From Candidatus Poribacteria bacterium (GTDB taxonomy: Bacteria; Poribacteria; DTPJ01; WJIO01), in the NCBI GenBank assembly GCA_014730235.1, contig WJIO01000247.1:1-24983 (forward strand): DNA of 24,983 nucleotides. Direction: 5' to 3'. The position numbers and the translations under genes are program-made. Below the pieces are notes generated by a model. That model saw only the letters and a list, made by a program, of their open reading frames with translations, did not search any database and was not told where the DNA came from. Below are positions 6,998-24,983 of the stretch, piece after piece (the first letter of the stretch is position 1; every line of letters begins with the position of its first letter).

Positions 6998-8929
6998 ATG
7001 TTTAAAAAATATAACCAGGATTTCACCATAAGGTCAATAATCATTGGTCTGATTCTGGCTCCGGTTTGTATTTACTGGGTAATGATGACCGAAGTCAAAT
7101 GGTATGTGCTTCAGGGAACCTCTATTCCTTTATTTGTCCGTCCAGTTTTTATATTGTTTTTAATCACCTGTAGTAATTTGTTATGGAGAAAATACTTTCC
7201 ACGATTTGCTCTCCGGACTGGTGAATTACTGGTAATATATTTTATTATGGTAATTTCATCTTCGTTTTCCGGGCACGATATGTTACAGAACCTGCTGGGA
7301 AGTATCGGACATGCTACATGGTTCGCCACCCCGGAAAATGAGTGGAACAGGCTTTTCATGGATCATCTTCCCGGCTGGCTTTTTGTCAAAGATCGTAGTA
7401 TTTTACAGGGATTTTACGAAGGTGAATCCTCATTTTATAACAGGCAAGTAATAAAAGCATGGATAATTCCAGTTGTTTCATGGACAATTTTTGTGCTTGC
7501 TTTAAACTTCATGATGCTTTGCATAAATGTCCTTGTTCGTCGTCAGTGGACTGAAAACGAAAAACTGGCTTATCCGATCATCCAGCTTCCTGTAGCCATG
7601 ATCCAGCAAAATAGCGTTTCTGATTTTTTCAGAAATAAAATAATGTGGGCTGGATTTAGCATAGCCTTTGGTCTTAGTATCCTGAATGGTTTGCATTTCC
7701 TTTTTCCTTCTGTTCCTGAACTCAATGTATCAATGCGGGATGTTGGGCATTATCTAACAGGTAAGCCCTGGAATGCCGTAGGTTGGGTTCCTATATCCCT
7801 TTTCCCTTTTGCTATTGGTATTGCATTCTTTCTACCATTGGATTTATCTTTTTCCTGCTGGTTCTTTTATGTGTTTCGCAAGCTTATAAGGGTAGTAGGA
7901 GTAGCGGCTGGAATACAAAGTCTGCCGGGATTCCCGTATTTCAACGAACAGGCCACCGGTGCATGGATTATGCTTGCTTTACTGGCTTTATGGGCATCCC
8001 GTCGGCACTTCAGAGAGATAGCAAAGAGGATATTTTATAACAAAGACACTGAAGCACATGAAGATGAACCCATGTCTTACAGAGCAGCTATCGCTGGATT
8101 TTTTTTAGGTTCAATTTTCCTGATAGCTTTCTCCGGCTATGCTGGTATGTCTATATGGGTTAGCGTATTGCTCTTTGGTATATATTTTCTGCTTTCTATT
8201 GCCATGACCCGGGTTCGGGCAGAATTGGGCGCGCCGCATGAGATATATTTTGTCAACCCTCAGGAAGCCATAAACGCAACAATTGGAACAAAACGGCTTG
8301 GTACAGTTAATATGACTATCGTATGCGGATATTACTGGTGGAATCGCTGTTACAGAAGTCATCAGATGCCATGTCAGTTAGAGGCATTTAAAATGTCTCA
8401 GGTAATGAACATAAGGAATCTAAAACGTTTTCCCATAATAATCATTCTGGGTAGTCTGGTTTCAATCCTTTCAGGATTCTGGATAGGTTTGGATCTTTAC
8501 TATCGCGAAGGAGCTTCATCAGGTTTACAGGGAAATCATATATGGGTAGGTTCAGAGACATTTAACCGCTTACAGCGTTGGATGAATATGCCCAGCGGGG
8601 GTGGAGATGGAATTCGCATATCTTTTATGATAGTTGGCTCTTTTGTTGTGATTTTAATGATGTTTTTACGGATGCGCTTTTTATGGTGGCCGTTTCATCC
8701 GGCTGGATATGCCCTTGCAATTAGTTATGCAATGGAGTATTATTGGTTTGCATTCTTTATTAGCTGGTTAATTAAACTGGTTATTATGAAATATGGGGGA
8801 ATCAGTGGTCACCGAAAGGCGGTACCATTTTTTCTTGGTATAATCTTGGGAGACTATGCGATGGGCTCTATTTGGAGCATAATAGGAGCTTCTATACTTC
8901 ATGCTCCTGTATATCGTATGTTTTATTAG
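6998..8929 (+). CDS. Polytopic membrane protein of the DUF6785/DUF6784 type
   Basis: This 643-residue protein has about 13 hydrophobic helices. The first is at about residues 17-33 and the last is in AVPFFLGIILGDYAMGSIWS near 610. Conserved-looking marks are the loop TRVRAELGAPHE near residue 410, WWPFHPAGYALAISYAM near 565 and YYWFAFFISWLIKLVIMKYGG near 585. I recognise these from the uncharacterised DUF6785/DUF6784 family of Poribacteria and PVC-type bacteria. The role is unknown; the shape suggests a transporter or a membrane-embedded enzyme, but no catalytic motif was found. The ATG has no good Shine-Dalgarno sequence. The gene follows a gap with MITE remains and precedes the secreted discoidin-like pair by 66 bases. 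Confidence 0.75.
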   Translation: MFKKYNQDFTIRSIIIGLILAPVCIYWVMMTEVKWYVLQGTSIPLFVRPVFILFLITCSNLLWRKYFPRFALRTGELLVIYFIMVISSSFSGHDMLQNLLGSIGHATWFATPENEWNRLFMDHLPGWLFVKDRSILQGFYEGESSFYNRQVIKAWIIPVVSWTIFVLALNFMMLCINVLVRRQWTENEKLAYPIIQLPVAMIQQNSVSDFFRNKIMWAGFSIAFGLSILNGLHFLFPSVPELNVSMRDVGHYLTGKPWNAVGWVPISLFPFAIGIAFFLPLDLSFSCWFFYVFRKLIRVVGVAAGIQSLPGFPYFNEQATGAWIMLALLALWASRRHFREIAKRIFYNKDTEAHEDEPMSYRAAIAGFFLGSIFLIAFSGYAGMSIWVSVLLFGIYFLLSIAMTRVRAELGAPHEIYFVNPQEAINATIGTKRLGTVNMTIVCGYYWWNRCYRSHQMPCQLEAFKMSQVMNIRNLKRFPIIIILGSLVSILSGFWIGLDLYYREGASSGLQGNHIWVGSETFNRLQRWMNMPSGGGDGIRISFMIVGSFVVILMMFLRMRFLWWPFHPAGYALAISYAMEYYWFAFFISWLIKLVIMKYGGISGHRKAVPFFLGIILGDYAMGSIWSIIGASILHAPVYRMFY

Positions 8930-8995
8930 GATATACATCTTGATAAAACGAATCATCTTTTCTAATAAAATTTAGCTATTTCAAGGAGGTATTCA

Positions 8996-9661
8996 ATGTC
9001 CTACAAAAGAATCGTTATGTTATTTGTCACTTTTATGTTGTCAATAGGTTTAGCATTTTCTGTATATGCACAAAAACAACCTTTCCCAGAAGACTGGGCT
9101 CAGGATGCAGGTCCTGAACCTGAAGAAGTACCGGAAGTTGATGAACGCGGTGCTGTCAATGTAGCCCTTTTATCAAATACATCACCCAACGCATCATCGG
9201 TTATACCAGGTTATGAGGACAGACACAGCATCGAGTTTCTCAATGACGGTTGGTACAACAACCCAAGAAGCTGGATCACCGGAGAAAACCCTCCAGTCTG
9301 GGTTGAAATTGATCTTGGATCAGTATACATGGTTGACAAGGTTGTTTTTGGGAGTGAACATACACCACACTGGGAAGACAGGGCCATAGAAGAATTTAGC
9401 GTTCTCGTTGCTACAGAATACAACGCAGATTCAAATGCAGAAACATGGACTGAAGTATTCAATTACGCAGGTGATCCTGTAAGAGATACAACACCATTCA
9501 CATTTGATCCTGCGGATGCAAGATGGGTTAGAATTGATATTCTTGCAGGCGATGGTTGTCGAATTGATGAGCTTGAAATCTATGCTGTACCAGATGCAAC
9601 GGCAGTAGACAAAACCGACAAAATGGCAACCATTTGGGGGAAGATTAAAATCGGTAAATAA
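8996..9661 (+). CDS. Secreted F5/8 type C (discoidin-like) domain protein, copy 1
   Basis: This 221-residue protein has a signal peptide at about residues 1-25 (hydrophobic core ending AFSVYAQ) and a strong AAGGAGG before the ATG. An acidic, proline-rich linker (FPEDWAQDAGPEPEEVPEVDERG) leads into one discoidin-type beta-sandwich at about residues 52-200: IEFLNDGWYNNPRSW, VWVEIDLGSVYMVDKVVFGS, FSVLVATEY, WTEVFNYAG, ARWVRIDI and RIDELEIYA. Domains of this type usually bind glycans or cell surfaces; no catalytic residues are seen. The C-terminus AVDKTDKMATIWGKIKIGK carries the motif shared with the LamG protein at 71 and with the next gene. The next gene is a close tandem paralogue 40 bases downstream. 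Confidence 0.85.
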   Translation: MSYKRIVMLFVTFMLSIGLAFSVYAQKQPFPEDWAQDAGPEPEEVPEVDERGAVNVALLSNTSPNASSVIPGYEDRHSIEFLNDGWYNNPRSWITGENPPVWVEIDLGSVYMVDKVVFGSEHTPHWEDRAIEEFSVLVATEYNADSNAETWTEVFNYAGDPVRDTTPFTFDPADARWVRIDILAGDGCRIDELEIYAVPDATAVDKTDKMATIWGKIKIGK

Positions 9662-19655: not shown

Positions 19656-20063
19656 TTATTTATCTACAGAACGACGTATCTTTTGCCATAGGGATTCACC
19701 CCGGCTGTTATCGTCTTTTCTGTCCTCCAGAAGTTTTCTTTGGGCTTCCAACTCATCAGCAAGTTTCATAATAATCGCATCGGATCTTTCATGGTTTACA
19801 CGTATCTCTTCCTGGAGTTTTTCTATCTGTTTATTCTTCTCATCCAACTCATTTCTCAGCATGCTTATTATCATGTCTTTGTCATTTTCTGACATGACAA
19901 TTTCGGCAACCTTGTCATCAGCAACATCAACCCCGACCATACGTCTACCGCTCTGCATTTTGCTTTGTATTTTGCCATCAGATATGTACCTTCTCACTGT
20001 CCTTTCTGACATGCCAAGTATGTCAGATGCCTGAGAAACTGTCACCCATTTTGTCATAGCCAC
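19656..20063 (-). CDS. Small HTH (MerR/excisionase-like) DNA-binding protein with coiled coil
   Basis: This 135-residue protein has a winged-HTH of the HTH_17/MerR type at residues 5-45 (WVTVSQASDILGMSERTVRRYISDGKIQSK) and a charged coiled coil at about 62-118 (NELDEKNKQIEKLQEEI), ending in a basic tail. The GTG at 20063 sits 5 bases after GGAG and is the likely start; the ATG at 20057 is the alternative. Upstream a palindrome, TTTGTCATGACAAA (20105-20118), with a further TCATGACAA half-site next to it, overlaps the likely -35 region (CATAAT -10 at 20087-20092), which suggests autoregulation. Such small proteins act as repressors, excisionases or plasmid/phage regulators. Which applies cannot be told. 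No recombinase or phage gene is nearby. Confidence 0.78.
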   Translation of the reverse strand: MAMTKWVTVSQASDILGMSERTVRRYISDGKIQSKMQSGRRMVGVDVADDKVAEIVMSENDKDMIISMLRNELDEKNKQIEKLQEEIRVNHERSDAIIMKLADELEAQRKLLEDRKDDNSRGESLWQKIRRSVDK

Positions 20064-20086: not shown

Positions 20087-20128
20087 ATTATGCCAATTCA
20101 AACCTTTGTCATGACAAATCATGACAAT
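20087..20128 (-). promoter_or_regulatory. Probable promoter and operator of the HTH gene
   Basis: A perfect 14-bp palindrome TTTGTCATGACAAA (20105-20118) is followed by a second TCATGACAA (20119-20127). On the - strand TTGTCA could be a -35 box, followed 19 bases later by CATAAT (20087-20092) as -10. The spacing is a little long. A dimer of the HTH protein binding here would block transcription. Confidence 0.5.
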
Positions 20129-20153: not shown

Positions 20154-20267
20154 AGCTCTTCCTAAAGATAAGAAACTTCTTTATGCAGATCTTCTAGATT
20201 CCTGCTTTCGCAGGAATGACAGGCTGAGATAATTTTCAATTATAACCACACCAAACCCGGAAGAGCC
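20154..20267. mobile_element. MITE copy A with ISL3-like ends
   Basis: The right end, read inward, is GGCTCTTCCGGGTTTGGTG, which resembles the ends I know from ISL3-family insertion sequences. The left end is AGCTCTTCC, after which about 13 bp are missing relative to copy B. The body matches copy B at 24811-24930 in the same orientation: TAAAGATAAGAAACTTCTTT, the hairpin core, then CTGAGA and TTTCAATTATAAC-like segments. The 8 bases on each side are ATTAATTT (20146-20153) and ATAAATTT (20268-20275), a slightly decayed 8-bp target duplication. It carries no gene. Confidence 0.75.
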
Positions 20268-20483: not shown

Positions 20484-22418
20484 TTATAAACCAACTTCTT
20501 TAAGAAATATCCGGTCTTTATCATTTAGATTATAAAGATTAAAAACCAGCCTATCGATATAACTGTCCAAAAAAATAAAATTACCTTTATCATTACAAGT
20601 TACTATTTCTTTAACAGCATTAACTATTTTGGTAACTAAGGCCTGATTGATGTCTGATATTATAGGTACAGGTACATCATCTGCATAACCTTTACGGAAG
20701 TGCATAGTTCTTGTAGATTGATTGTAAATGAATTGATGAACATACCAGGATATAAATCTTGAATTAATGATTGCACATAAATAGCTTAAGGGATATGAAT
20801 CACTTACAATATTAGTAACTGTATTAGAATTTAACCAGTAACCTTCTTCATCCAAAGCAGCCATAAGTTTAATATGAGGTTTTGGATGCTTAATATGAGC
20901 TACTATATCCTGGGTTACTATTTTAGGATTATAAAACCTCTTAAGGCCATTAATAAAAGCTCTTTCATTTTTCTTACGCTGTGGAACATCTTTCTTTAAC
21001 TTGTAGCGTTTAATATCCCTTCCCTTTAATACTGTATCTTTTTCTTCATTTTCAGGATATAGATGGCTGTTTGGATTCAATCCACTCCATATTTGTGTTA
21101 TATCACCCAAACTTATACAGTTATCTGTTAATTTATTAATAATATTTTTTACATTTTCATTTCTAACCCATATATAAAAACGTTTTGGCCTTAAGTATTT
21201 ATTATTAATCCTATGAGAGTAGTTAATTTTTTCTTTCTCAGCAACGGATATTGATATAGGTATTTGTTGTTTTTTTTCCGTTTTACTAGCGATTATTATT
21301 AACTGTTCAAGGCGAACATTTGGAAAGACTTTGCGAGTATCAATAATTTCCAGTATTTTACATTTATCAAGTAATAATTGTCTTGTATTCTCCCAACTCA
21401 GTACATAACTTAGGGATTTAGGAACTATAAAACCCAGTAATCCATCTGTTTCCAGGGATTTTATTGATTTTCTTATAAACAGTGAAGTTGAATCTAATTT
21501 ACATTTACAGCCAAACTCATCTTGCAGTAACATTTTTTCATTTTTGGAAAATTTAATTCCGTAGGGAGGATTACCAATAATTATTTGATATTTTTTATCC
21601 AAATCAGAATTATTATGACATCTTTTTGGCAATAGATAATTTTCATTACTGATATTATTTTTGCAATTGAAAACAATATCTTTCCGGGTTATAACTATTG
21701 ATTTTAGAATTATTATTGCTGATGCAATTTCAATTGCCTCCTGATCCAGATCCATCCCAAATAAATGATTGTTGACAATGTCGGAAACCCAGGAATCATC
21801 ATCACGATAATAATAACTATAAAATTCAACGAATAGATTAAAAGCATATGTCAGAAAATATCCTGAGCCGCAAGCAGGATCACAAATTTTCAAATCCTTT
21901 ATGGATTCAAGATCTCTGGATGATGATATATGCTTTTTTTTACCCCAGAGGTATTTACCCAATGTCTGGTCTACAATATATTGAATAATATGCTGAGGTG
22001 TGTAATATATACCTTTCCCTTTACAATACTTGTTTGACTTTTCATTATTAATTTTTCTATATTTTTCATCATATATTATTCTGTTGACCAGGAAGTTCTC
22101 ATATACGTTGCCAAGTATTTCAAAGGGTATACTTTCCATACGAATAGATGATATTTCATCTTTAATTTCATCAACTATTTTTTTTGGGAAATAAAATGAT
22201 ATATCTGGTCGGATCAGCTTATTAAGTGTATCTGTAATATGAAGTTTTCTGCTTTTTAATAATTCTTGGGTTAGTAATCTAAGCAGCATCTTTTGTGATG
22301 CCTGGATAACCTTTTTTATTTCAAAATTACTATCCGCAAATTCCGTTTTCTCAATGAGTTTCTTCCGCCATTCTATTGATTTCTTTATTATCGATTCCTG
22401 ACCCAATTTTCCTCTCAT
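20484..22418 (-). CDS. Eco57I/TaqI-type N6-adenine DNA methyltransferase, no nuclease domain seen
   Basis: The protein is 644 residues. A helical N-terminus (1-120) leads to GKGIYYTPQHIIQYIV (motif X region). SAM motif I is CDPACGSGYFLTYAF with Asp180, and the amino-methyltransferase motif IV is GNPPYGIKFS (Asn283 to Tyr286). A TaqI-like target recognition domain follows at about 420-630 (QIWSGLNPNSHLYPENEE, VLKGRDIKRYK, YWLNSNTVTNIV, IINSRFISWY). It would methylate adenine within a specific DNA site. Type IIG enzymes with this core usually carry an N-terminal PD-(D/E)XK nuclease of about 200 residues, and none is recognisable here. The ATG lacks a good Shine-Dalgarno; the frame is closed by a stop upstream. 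A TTG five codons in, after AGAGGA, is an alternative start. It follows the J-domain gene by 66 bases. Base composition is clearly more AT-rich than the metabolic genes. Confidence 0.88.
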   Translation of the reverse strand: MRGKLGQESIIKKSIEWRKKLIEKTEFADSNFEIKKVIQASQKMLLRLLTQELLKSRKLHITDTLNKLIRPDISFYFPKKIVDEIKDEISSIRMESIPFEILGNVYENFLVNRIIYDEKYRKINNEKSNKYCKGKGIYYTPQHIIQYIVDQTLGKYLWGKKKHISSSRDLESIKDLKICDPACGSGYFLTYAFNLFVEFYSYYYRDDDSWVSDIVNNHLFGMDLDQEAIEIASAIIILKSIVITRKDIVFNCKNNISNENYLLPKRCHNNSDLDKKYQIIIGNPPYGIKFSKNEKMLLQDEFGCKCKLDSTSLFIRKSIKSLETDGLLGFIVPKSLSYVLSWENTRQLLLDKCKILEIIDTRKVFPNVRLEQLIIIASKTEKKQQIPISISVAEKEKINYSHRINNKYLRPKRFYIWVRNENVKNIINKLTDNCISLGDITQIWSGLNPNSHLYPENEEKDTVLKGRDIKRYKLKKDVPQRKKNERAFINGLKRFYNPKIVTQDIVAHIKHPKPHIKLMAALDEEGYWLNSNTVTNIVSDSYPLSYLCAIINSRFISWYVHQFIYNQSTRTMHFRKGYADDVPVPIISDINQALVTKIVNAVKEIVTCNDKGNFIFLDSYIDRLVFNLYNLNDKDRIFLKEVGL

Positions 22419-22484
22419 ATATTTTAATCTATGTAAATGATAATCAAGGTATTTTTTTAATTATAATATTCAAGTCGTGAGAAC

Positions 22485-24716
22485 CTATATTTTTAAATAC
22501 CAGGTTTTGTCTGGCTCCATTAATTCTTCTACCTTAAAGGCCTGTTCACAACCAATACTTTTTAATTCCTCTTCACCAAAATTCCAGCTTTGAGGGTTCA
22601 TATCTTTATTATAATGCAAATGTAAACCATTTTTCTTAGTTATTGAGACCATTTTTTTTATTGCTTCCAGTTCAAGCTCTTTGATTTTTTCTTTAAATCC
22701 CGGATCAAATGTATTTAAATTATGCTCCCTGGCTGACCAATTAGTAAAAGGAACACCAAACATTGCAGTGGTGATAACAACATCAAAGTATTCTTCCACA
22801 AAAGCCTCATCAATTCTGTCAACACTTATTCTGTAATATTTACATCCTCCATACTCTGAAGGACCACTATAGTTAATATCAGCAGCAGAGACTTCAGCTC
22901 CTAGCTTTGCCAGAATTATTGGTACTGAAAATTCTTCAGGTTCTCTACCAACCCCCATAACAAGGATTTTTTTACCTGACCAGCTATCCAGCATGGATTC
23001 AAGTATTCTTATTTCCTCAAAATATGGTCCCAAATAACTGCTATTTTCTTCATCCTCATAATTTTCAGAATTCCAAGCTGTATCTATCTTTTGATTTTCA
23101 GGTTTATCAGTAACTTGATTTTGATTTAATTCATCCTGTTCTAGATTATCATGATCCTCATATGGATTGCTTAAACCCTCCATGTATTTAAAATCTGATT
23201 CCATTTCGTTTTCCTCCACTGTATTAATATTATCCAGTAGTTTGATTTTCTTTTGTTTTCCAGCATTTTTATCTGGTTTATTAGAAGTATTATTAAATAA
23301 TCTGCTTATATTTCCCAGATAATTTATCATAGAAGAATCTTCTTTAAAGACATTAGCATCATTTTTTCCTGATTTTATTTTCCTGATGACAGAATCTTTT
23401 GCCTCTATAAGTAATTTAAAATACTGTTCCTTTTGTTCCTTGTCAGGTGCATCTGAATTTTTATCTGGATGATATATCTTGGCTTTTCGTTTAAAAGCAT
23501 CCTTAACTTGCTTTTCTGTTATTTCTTTTGTGTTATCAAGACCTAGAATTGAGTAATAATCACTGGGTTGGAAGAACATGGAAAAATATCTTGATGCAAA
23601 TGCAAAATCAGGATTCTGGTTATATATTATCCGGGCATATTCTTCATTTTCAATAGCGATTTTGGATTGACCAAAAAGTCTGTAGGTAATTTTTTGTTTC
23701 AGCAACGCAAAATTCCTGATCTCTTCTTTTACCGCAGTTATCACATCCTGACCCATTTTAGATAGATCATCCAGGTTTATCTTCTCCCAGAAAGATTTAT
23801 TTTTATTCAAACGTTTAAAGGCGGAAATATATTCTTCCTCTATTTTTTTTACATTATCCCTATATTCCTTCTCTTTCTTTATTTTGTCTTCATCTTGAAT
23901 TTTTTCCTGTTCCTTATCTGGAGTGGATTCTTCAGCTTTCTTTTTTGGTTTAATGTCACCTATATGATTTAGAGAATAAGAAGCTATTTGGTATTTTGCC
24001 TCAATATCCGATAGTTCTGAGAAAAATATTCTTTCCTTATCTGAATATTTCAGGGCATCCAGAGGTGATAATTCACATGATAATTGATCATTTCCTGATT
24101 CAGATAATAAAGCCTGATATGCAATTTCACCTGATATACCTTCAGGAAATATTTGTGCTGCTTTACGAATTTTTATACATCTATGCAGGTTCTGCACCAT
24201 TGGCCATATTAATTCTTTCTTCATCTTCAAAGGGAAATTGCCAAAATTTACCTTATTAAGTCCAGGATCAATATATTTATTATATTTCTTAAATATTCTT
24301 CTTATTTCTTTACTGGCGTAAATTTCACATTCTTCATTTCCAGAAAGCATGTTTATGGCTTCAGATAATGTAAGAGCAACAGCAACGTTATATTTAACAG
24401 CAAATGGTATTGAATCAGAACCGAAATTAAATGATGTTTTATTGTCTGTATTTATGTGCTTTTTGGCTTCATCATCAATAAATTCCTTAATCACGTGTTC
24501 AATTCTGCTTTTTCCATAGCTTCTTAATTGTCTATCAACAGAAAACCACTCAATAATCCCGAGTTTCTTTTTTGTTGATAGTATCTTTTCTATATTCTTA
24601 CTTTTATCATTATCTTTATTCAGTATAAAGGTATCATCTATCCTTATTTTGGGTTTGCTATCTGGAATGTTATTATCTTCATCTATAAGCAAGTCTATTA
24701 TAATTTTTGAAATCAT
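22485..24716 (-). CDS. J-domain and methyltransferase-like fusion protein of unknown function
   Basis: The 743-residue protein has an unrecognised N-terminal region (about 1-255) and a Lys/Glu-rich charged helix (about 255-305). A further helical region runs to about 380. A complete J-domain follows at about 386-448: DYYSILGLDN, QVKDAFKRKAKIYHPDKNSD with His416-Pro417-Asp418, the tripeptide that stimulates Hsp70 ATPase. After an acidic linker (about 460-565) comes a Rossmann-type methyltransferase-like domain: ILVMGVGREPEEF (SAM-type glycine loop at 588-590), LGAEVSAADINYSG and DVVITTAMFGVPFTNWS. This lacks an NPPY-type DNA-methylation motif, so the substrate may not be DNA. It is the first gene of a probable operon with the adenine methyltransferase. 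It is strongly AT-rich, which suggests horizontal transfer. No known family was recognised for the whole protein. Confidence 0.7.
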   Translation of the reverse strand: MISKIIIDLLIDEDNNIPDSKPKIRIDDTFILNKDNDKSKNIEKILSTKKKLGIIEWFSVDRQLRSYGKSRIEHVIKEFIDDEAKKHINTDNKTSFNFGSDSIPFAVKYNVAVALTLSEAINMLSGNEECEIYASKEIRRIFKKYNKYIDPGLNKVNFGNFPLKMKKELIWPMVQNLHRCIKIRKAAQIFPEGISGEIAYQALLSESGNDQLSCELSPLDALKYSDKERIFFSELSDIEAKYQIASYSLNHIGDIKPKKKAEESTPDKEQEKIQDEDKIKKEKEYRDNVKKIEEEYISAFKRLNKNKSFWEKINLDDLSKMGQDVITAVKEEIRNFALLKQKITYRLFGQSKIAIENEEYARIIYNQNPDFAFASRYFSMFFQPSDYYSILGLDNTKEITEKQVKDAFKRKAKIYHPDKNSDAPDKEQKEQYFKLLIEAKDSVIRKIKSGKNDANVFKEDSSMINYLGNISRLFNNTSNKPDKNAGKQKKIKLLDNINTVEENEMESDFKYMEGLSNPYEDHDNLEQDELNQNQVTDKPENQKIDTAWNSENYEDEENSSYLGPYFEEIRILESMLDSWSGKKILVMGVGREPEEFSVPIILAKLGAEVSAADINYSGPSEYGGCKYYRISVDRIDEAFVEEYFDVVITTAMFGVPFTNWSAREHNLNTFDPGFKEKIKELELEAIKKMVSITKKNGLHLHYNKDMNPQSWNFGEEELKSIGCEQAFKVEELMEPDKTWYLKI

Positions 24717-24983
24717 GTAAGTATCTTCTGTTAATTTAAATTATTTTTCGTAGTAGTGAAAGGATTTTATGGTTAATTTTATATAGATCTTTTACTTTTT
24801 AATTATCACTGCTTCTTCCGGGTTCAGTGTGGTAAAGATAAGAAACTTCTTTATGCTGTTATTCCTGCGAAAGCAGGAATGACAAGCTGAGAGAATCTTC
24901 AATTATAACTACACTAAATCTGGAAGAACTTTATCACTTACAATAACTGCATTATATGAAAAAATAAACGCTATGTCAAGAAC
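24717..24983. other. Right-end region: probable promoter area and MITE
   Basis: No gene was seen. The AT-rich stretch 24717-24802 should hold the promoter of the J-domain gene, but no convincing -35/-10 pair can be named. MITE copy B occupies 24811-24930. The last 45 bases of the window (24939-24983) show nothing I can identify. Confidence 0.4.
24811..24930. mobile_element. MITE copy B with ISL3-like ends and perfect 8-bp target duplication
   Basis: The 120-bp element has imperfect terminal inverted repeats of about 21 bp: TTCTTCCGGGTTCAGTGTGG at the left and, read inward, TTCTTCCAGATTTAGTGTAG at the right. TTATCACT flanks it exactly on both sides (24803-24810 and 24931-24938), an 8-bp duplication as made by ISL3-type transposition. 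The centre is a hairpin ATTCCTGC-GAAA-GCAGGAAT (24861-24880). It has the same orientation as copy A. Confidence 0.85.

What the first reader, a model, noticed from the sequence alone, without database searches (positions are those of the whole stretch)
20484..24716. Two-gene unit: J-domain/methyltransferase fusion plus nuclease-less Eco57I-type adenine methyltransferase
Both genes are on the - strand, 66 bases apart and more AT-rich than their surroundings. The second has full adenine methyltransferase motifs and a TaqI-like recognition domain but no nuclease. The first couples an Hsp70 co-chaperone domain to a second methyltransferase-like domain and a 255-residue unknown N-terminus. I know no described restriction-modification, BREX or DISARM module with this pair. 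If the N-terminus of the first protein is an effector, this could be a defence system in which a chaperone controls or assembles the complex. Both proteins may instead act together in epigenetic marking without restriction.
Basis: partly seen in the sequence, partly recalled or inferred. Interest (0 to 1): 0.72.

Follow-up and report, generated by a model that had tools for sequence, protein, structure and literature searches.

The report
J-domain protein paired with orphan methyltransferase
Two apparently imported genes sit together in an uncultured bacterium: a DNA-marking enzyme of a common restriction family that has no DNA-cutting part, and a one-of-a-kind protein carrying a chaperone-helper domain; the pairing is real and undescribed, but it was seen in only one genome, so its proposed role in virus defence is not established.

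Summary
At 22485-24716(-) there is a 743-aa protein with a genuine J-domain (residues 386-441, intact HPD). 66 bp downstream, at 20484-22418(-), is a 644-aa Eco57I/TaqI-type adenine methyltransferase with intact motifs DPACGSG and NPPY. Its nearest relatives are type IIG restriction-methyltransferase fusions; it lacks the 220-380 N-terminal residues that carry their D...ExK nuclease. Both genes are clearly more AT-rich (29.6 and 31.4% GC; neighbours 35.7-45.6%), have no obvious ribosome-binding site, and follow a perfect sigma-70 consensus. They look like an acquired operon. The 'second methyltransferase domain' rests on motif I only; no profile matched it and the fold model was too poor to test it. 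The defence interpretation is not supported by comparison. None of the 80 nearest methyltransferase loci has a J-domain gene nearby, and the J protein has no relative beyond the J-domain itself in any collection or genome set searched. The contig ends 267 bp upstream, and the visible side is not a defence island. The host has four other, ordinary J-domain ORFs, so this is not its housekeeping DnaJ. My best guess is an R-M-like or epigenetic cassette with an orphan-type methyltransferase and an ORFan partner. Chance adjacency remains nearly as likely.

The parts
22485..24716 (-). 743-aa J-domain protein: ORFan N-terminus (1-255), charged, largely helical stretch (256-383), J-domain (384-449, HPD intact), acidic low-complexity linker (450-555), Rossmann/SAM-motif-like C-terminus (556-743)
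   Evidence: ORF; Pfam DnaJ 386-441, E 1.1e-9; no other family match; motif I; segment composition
23394..23561 (-). J-domain coding segment
   Evidence: PF00226, 44.4 bits, over the curated cut-off
20484..22418 (-). 644-aa gamma-type N6-adenine DNA methyltransferase with TaqI-like specificity domain and no nuclease
   Evidence: Pfam Eco57I, N6_Mtase, TaqI_C; motifs DPACGSG, GMDLD and NPPYG intact, N-terminal nuclease region absent relative to type IIG relatives
24951..24979 (-). perfect sigma-70-type promoter consensus, TTGACA-17-TATAAT, upstream of the J-domain gene
   Evidence: 12 of 12 matches; a consensus match only
24833..24927 (-). copy of a dispersed repeat, inside the putative leader of the unit
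20163..20264 (-). second copy of the same dispersed repeat, downstream of the unit; direct orientation, 84-91% identical
   Evidence: family widespread in the genome

Best explanation
A horizontally acquired two-gene operon. The second gene is an orphan-type, probably active, sequence-specific N6-adenine methyltransferase of the type IIG/Eco57I lineage without a nuclease; it marks a specific DNA sequence. The first gene is an ORFan multidomain partner, which I think most likely supplies the non-methylating half of an R-M-like or modification-linked system. Its J-domain would recruit the host Hsp70 (DnaK) to assemble, hold inactive or turn over the complex. Shown: gene anatomy, intact methyltransferase motifs, loss of the nuclease region, foreign composition, intact J-domain with HPD. 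Inferred: co-transcription, catalytic activity, DnaK recruitment, and any restriction or defence role of the J protein.
For: Methyltransferase motifs are intact and the type IIG nuclease segment is missing. The nearest relatives in 80 loci are nearly all nuclease-containing type IIG proteins of about 900-1100 aa. The two genes are 66 bp apart on the same strand, share atypical GC and GC3 and share the lack of a Shine-Dalgarno-like leader, which suggests joint acquisition. A perfect promoter consensus lies upstream of the first gene. The J-domain is real and distinct from the four ordinary J-domain ORFs of the host. General knowledge: type II endonucleases often have no detectable relatives and sit beside their methyltransferase. 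Chaperones are linked to defence elsewhere: DnaJ is needed for bNACHT25 phage sensing (PMC12169576), and Hsp70-like domains occur in CoCoNuT systems (PMC11090510).
Against: The pair is seen in one genome only. No nuclease motif can be claimed in the J protein: the only strict D...ExK match (418-440) is helix III of the J-domain, and a loose one in the N-terminus (218-241) also occurs in 23% of shuffled sequences. No co-occurrence with defence genes was seen. Adjacency and shared composition could arise because both genes lie in one imported segment without working together.
Confidence: 0.38

Rival explanations
1. Two functionally unrelated genes that happen to lie next to each other in an imported AT-rich segment: a solitary methyltransferase and an ORFan J-domain protein.
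For: No J-domain ORF near any of the 80 nearest methyltransferase relatives. No homologue of the J protein in any search. The J protein has a charged middle stretch and a 106-residue acidic linker, features of a fast-evolving accessory protein.
Against: Same strand, 66 bp apart, matching base composition and similar leaders.
Confidence: 0.32
2. Epigenetic marking pair without restriction: the methyltransferase marks the genome or the mobile element that brought it, and the J protein stabilises it or targets it through DnaK.
For: No recognisable nuclease in either protein. Orphan methyltransferases are common (general knowledge; compare the abstract of PMC5867850).
Against: No target site or phenotype is known; the J protein is far larger than an assembly factor would need to be; ORFan endonucleases cannot be excluded by sequence.
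Confidence: 0.2
3. Remnant of a type IIG system: the methyltransferase is the leftover modification half of a decayed enzyme and the J protein landed in front of it.
For: Lack of the N-terminal nuclease relative to its closest relatives.
Against: The gene is an intact 644-codon frame with its own start and all catalytic motifs, and no nuclease remnant fits in the 66 bp between the genes.
Confidence: 0.1

Closest known systems
Type IIG restriction-methyltransferases (Eco57I/MmeI-like, PADLOC REase_MTase_IIG)
   Same: Methyltransferase core plus TaqI-like specificity domain; best relatives at 26-34% identity
   Different: No N-terminal D...ExK nuclease; about 640 instead of 900-1100 aa; a J-domain gene next to it
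Solitary gamma-type m6A methyltransferases (TaqI, BseCI)
   Same: Similar size (BseCI chain 585 aa) and domain order; BseCI is among the four PDB sequence matches
   Different: Low similarity; BseCI and TaqI belong to ordinary type II R-M systems (general knowledge), with no J-domain partner
BREX PglX/BrxX
   Same: Shares methyltransferase motifs; best NCBIfam hit, E 1e-31 but 109.6 bits against a cut-off of 500
   Different: Half the length; in the window no other BREX gene was recognised among the genes scanned
DnaJ/Hsp40 J-domain proteins
   Same: J-domain with HPD
   Different: No G/F-rich region, zinc-finger or DnaJ C-terminal match; J-domain lies in the middle of a 743-aa ORFan; lowest J-domain score of the five in the genome
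Chaperone-linked defence: bNACHT25-DnaJ (PMC12169576), CoCoNuT Hsp70-like proteins (PMC11090510)
   Same: A chaperone component tied to anti-phage systems
   Different: There DnaJ is the host's own, or the component is Hsp70-like; here a dedicated J-domain is fused into the unit's own protein

Membership tests
Type IIG restriction-modification enzyme | N-terminal PD-(D/E)xK nuclease fused to methyltransferase and specificity domain | tested here: not met
   Only 79 residues before the shared core, with no D...ExK motif; 13 of 16 full-length relatives have it
Eco57I/TaqI-type N6-adenine methyltransferase | SAM-binding motif I, NPPY motif IV, TaqI-like specificity domain | tested here: met
   Pfam matches above curated cut-offs and aligned motifs; activity not tested
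J-domain protein (class C-like: J-domain only) | J-domain with HPD; no class A/B DnaJ regions | tested here: met
   Pfam DnaJ and no other family in the 743 aa
Class I SAM methyltransferase (C-terminus of the J protein) | Rossmann-like SAM domain | tested here: inconclusive
   Motif I-like sequence found in 4 of 20000 shuffles, with a pattern written after seeing the sequence; no profile match; model pLDDT 47, structural matches uninformative
BREX | PglX plus PglZ, BrxC and others in one cluster | tested here: not met
   PglX score far below cut-off; of the nine other window genes scanned with Pfam, none matches a BREX component; the upstream side is cut by the contig end
Type II R-M system | Separate cognate endonuclease beside the methyltransferase | tested here: inconclusive
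   The J protein has no significant nuclease motif or match, but ORFan endonucleases cannot be excluded by sequence
Conserved defence system | Gene pair recurring in several genomes, often in defence islands | tested here: not met
   No second instance in 80 related loci, 83 other genomes of the phylum, 30 genomes carrying methyltransferase relatives, two further sets of 334 and 395 genomes, plasmids, phages or viral contigs; metagenomes not searched

The most novel reading that the evidence does not exclude
A restriction-modification-like immune unit in which a dedicated J-domain protein, carrying an unknown effector and a possible second SAM-binding domain, uses the host Hsp70 machine to control a nuclease-less adenine methyltransferase or its partner activity.
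Probability: 0.13. Interest if true: 0.75.

Novelty: new variant of a known kind. Interest (0 to 1): 0.38.

Why it matters
If the pair works together, it would be a modification system with its own built-in Hsp70 co-chaperone, extending the emerging link between chaperones and phage sensing (bNACHT25-DnaJ). If not, it is one more orphan methyltransferase next to an unclassified J-domain ORFan.

Tried and rejected
Relatives of the J protein: pattern scans of genome and viral contigs, tblastn of plasmids and phages with the whole protein and its parts, whole-genome searches of the phylum and other groups. All gave J-domain hits at best. One search returned the same genomes and hits, so it counts once. 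In the wider sets only the top few candidates per genome were scored, and one search had no positive genome, so these negatives are weaker than they look.

The flanking direct repeats (20163-20264 and 24833-24927) as transposition boundaries: rejected, because the repeat is a dispersed family in this genome.

A nuclease in the J protein from its LLIEAK motif: rejected, as it is J-domain helix III and no better than shuffles.

AlphaFold of the whole J protein (pLDDT 35) and of its C-terminus (pLDDT 47): too poor to use. The structural rows for the C-terminus (ferredoxin-like ACT/PII, Z about 6, residues 27-100) are not trusted.

The HTH gene 19656-20063 as MADS MAD1: only a generic HTH match; it lies 420 bp downstream across a repeat, so it is not counted as part of the unit.

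Literature: no paper was found that describes a J-domain fused to a methyltransferase in such a context.

Full report
WHAT IS THERE. The window is an entire 24,983-base contig of a 5.53-Mb, 451-contig assembly. The two ORFs are as described: 22485-24716(-), 743 aa, and 20484-22418(-), 644 aa, separated by 66 bp. Pfam finds a DnaJ domain at residues 386-441 of the first. It finds Eco57I, N6_Mtase and TaqI_C in the second. Both genes have the lowest GC of the 16 window genes (0.314 and 0.296; the other 14 have 0.357-0.456) and the lowest GC3. Neither has the AGGAGG-like leader that several other window genes have. A perfect TTGACA-17-TATAAT lies at 24979-24951(-), upstream of the J gene. Together this suggests a foreign two-gene operon; co-transcription is inferred.

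THE METHYLTRANSFERASE. Motif I (DPACGSG), the acidic residue after the second strand (GMDLD) and NPPYG are intact and align with 19 relatives. Relatives in the same phylum and in 80 loci across many phyla are roughly 20-34% identical and are mostly type IIG enzymes of 900-1100 aa. Of 16 full-length ones aligned, 13 have a D...(E)xK nuclease motif in the 220-380 residues before the shared core. The window enzyme has only 79 residues there and no such motif. It is therefore a methyltransferase of the type IIG/Eco57I lineage without a nuclease, and a complete gene rather than a visible pseudogene.

THE J PROTEIN. The J-domain keeps HPD and the surrounding helices. It is the weakest-scoring of five J-domain ORFs in the genome; the other four (286-377 aa) include much stronger matches, so this is not the housekeeping DnaJ. 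The remainder matches nothing: Pfam to E 10, NCBIfam and PADLOC, PHROGs apart from J-domain and chance-level hits, PDB sequences. The C-terminus has a convincing motif I-like stretch, but no profile or usable model supports it. I therefore call it methyltransferase-like, unproven. The N-terminus has no nuclease motif better than chance.

DOES THE PAIR RECUR? Not in anything searched. No J-domain ORF lies near any of the 80 nearest methyltransferase relatives, checked both by sequence search with the J protein and with a J-domain profile that recovers the window protein (that protein is in the model by construction). Only one viral-contig relative of the methyltransferase was found, a 1057-codon open frame without a J-domain neighbour. 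Whole-genome searches of 84 genomes of the phylum, 30 genomes with methyltransferase relatives, and two further sets (334 and 395 genomes) found only J-domain hits or nothing. Metagenome contigs could not be searched, and the host order has only two genomes held, so rarity may partly reflect sampling.

CONTEXT. The rest of the contig that was scanned is metabolic and transport genes: RND efflux, pyruvate kinase, pyruvate formate-lyase-like, GH127 and an ABC-2 permease. It is not a defence island on the visible side. The other side is lost at the contig end 267 bp upstream of the J gene. Direct repeats flank the unit, but they belong to a dispersed family and do not mark an element.

INTERPRETATION. 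The cautious reading is an imported orphan-type methyltransferase with an ORFan J-domain neighbour. My preferred mechanism, at 0.38, is an R-M-like or modification-linked pair in which the J protein is the non-methylating partner and its J-domain engages DnaK. Chance adjacency is nearly as likely (0.32). Precedents for chaperones in phage defence exist (PMC12169576; PMC11090510), but none has this architecture.

Noticed in passing
20163-20264 and 24833-24927; also many places in G000: A roughly 115-bp dispersed repeat with the palindromic core ATTCCTGCGAAAGCAGGAAT, 81-91% identical between the full-length matches. The first look gave 853 candidates in the genome; only 40 were scored, and they yielded 69 matches.
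   Followed up: partly
19656-20063 (-), operator-like site about 20105-20118: A 135-aa HTH_17/MerR-like protein with a coiled-coil-like tail, preceded by the perfect palindrome TTTGTCATGACAAA; further TGTCAT/ATGACA-like motifs lie after the gene. It looks autoregulated.
   Followed up: no
L005-L018: Type IIG-like enzymes of about 1090 aa are frequent in this phylum: 13 of the other 83 genomes carry a relative at E <= 1e-30.
   Followed up: no
6998-9661: Two ORFs of 643 and 221 aa without any NCBIfam match between pyruvate kinase and an F5/8-type C domain protein.
   Followed up: no
L051 (5735-9135): A Hodarchaeota contig with two adjacent Eco57I-like methyltransferase ORFs in tandem (590 and 558 codons, overlapping ends) that lack room for the type IIG nuclease, and a third relative on the opposite strand.
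   Followed up: no
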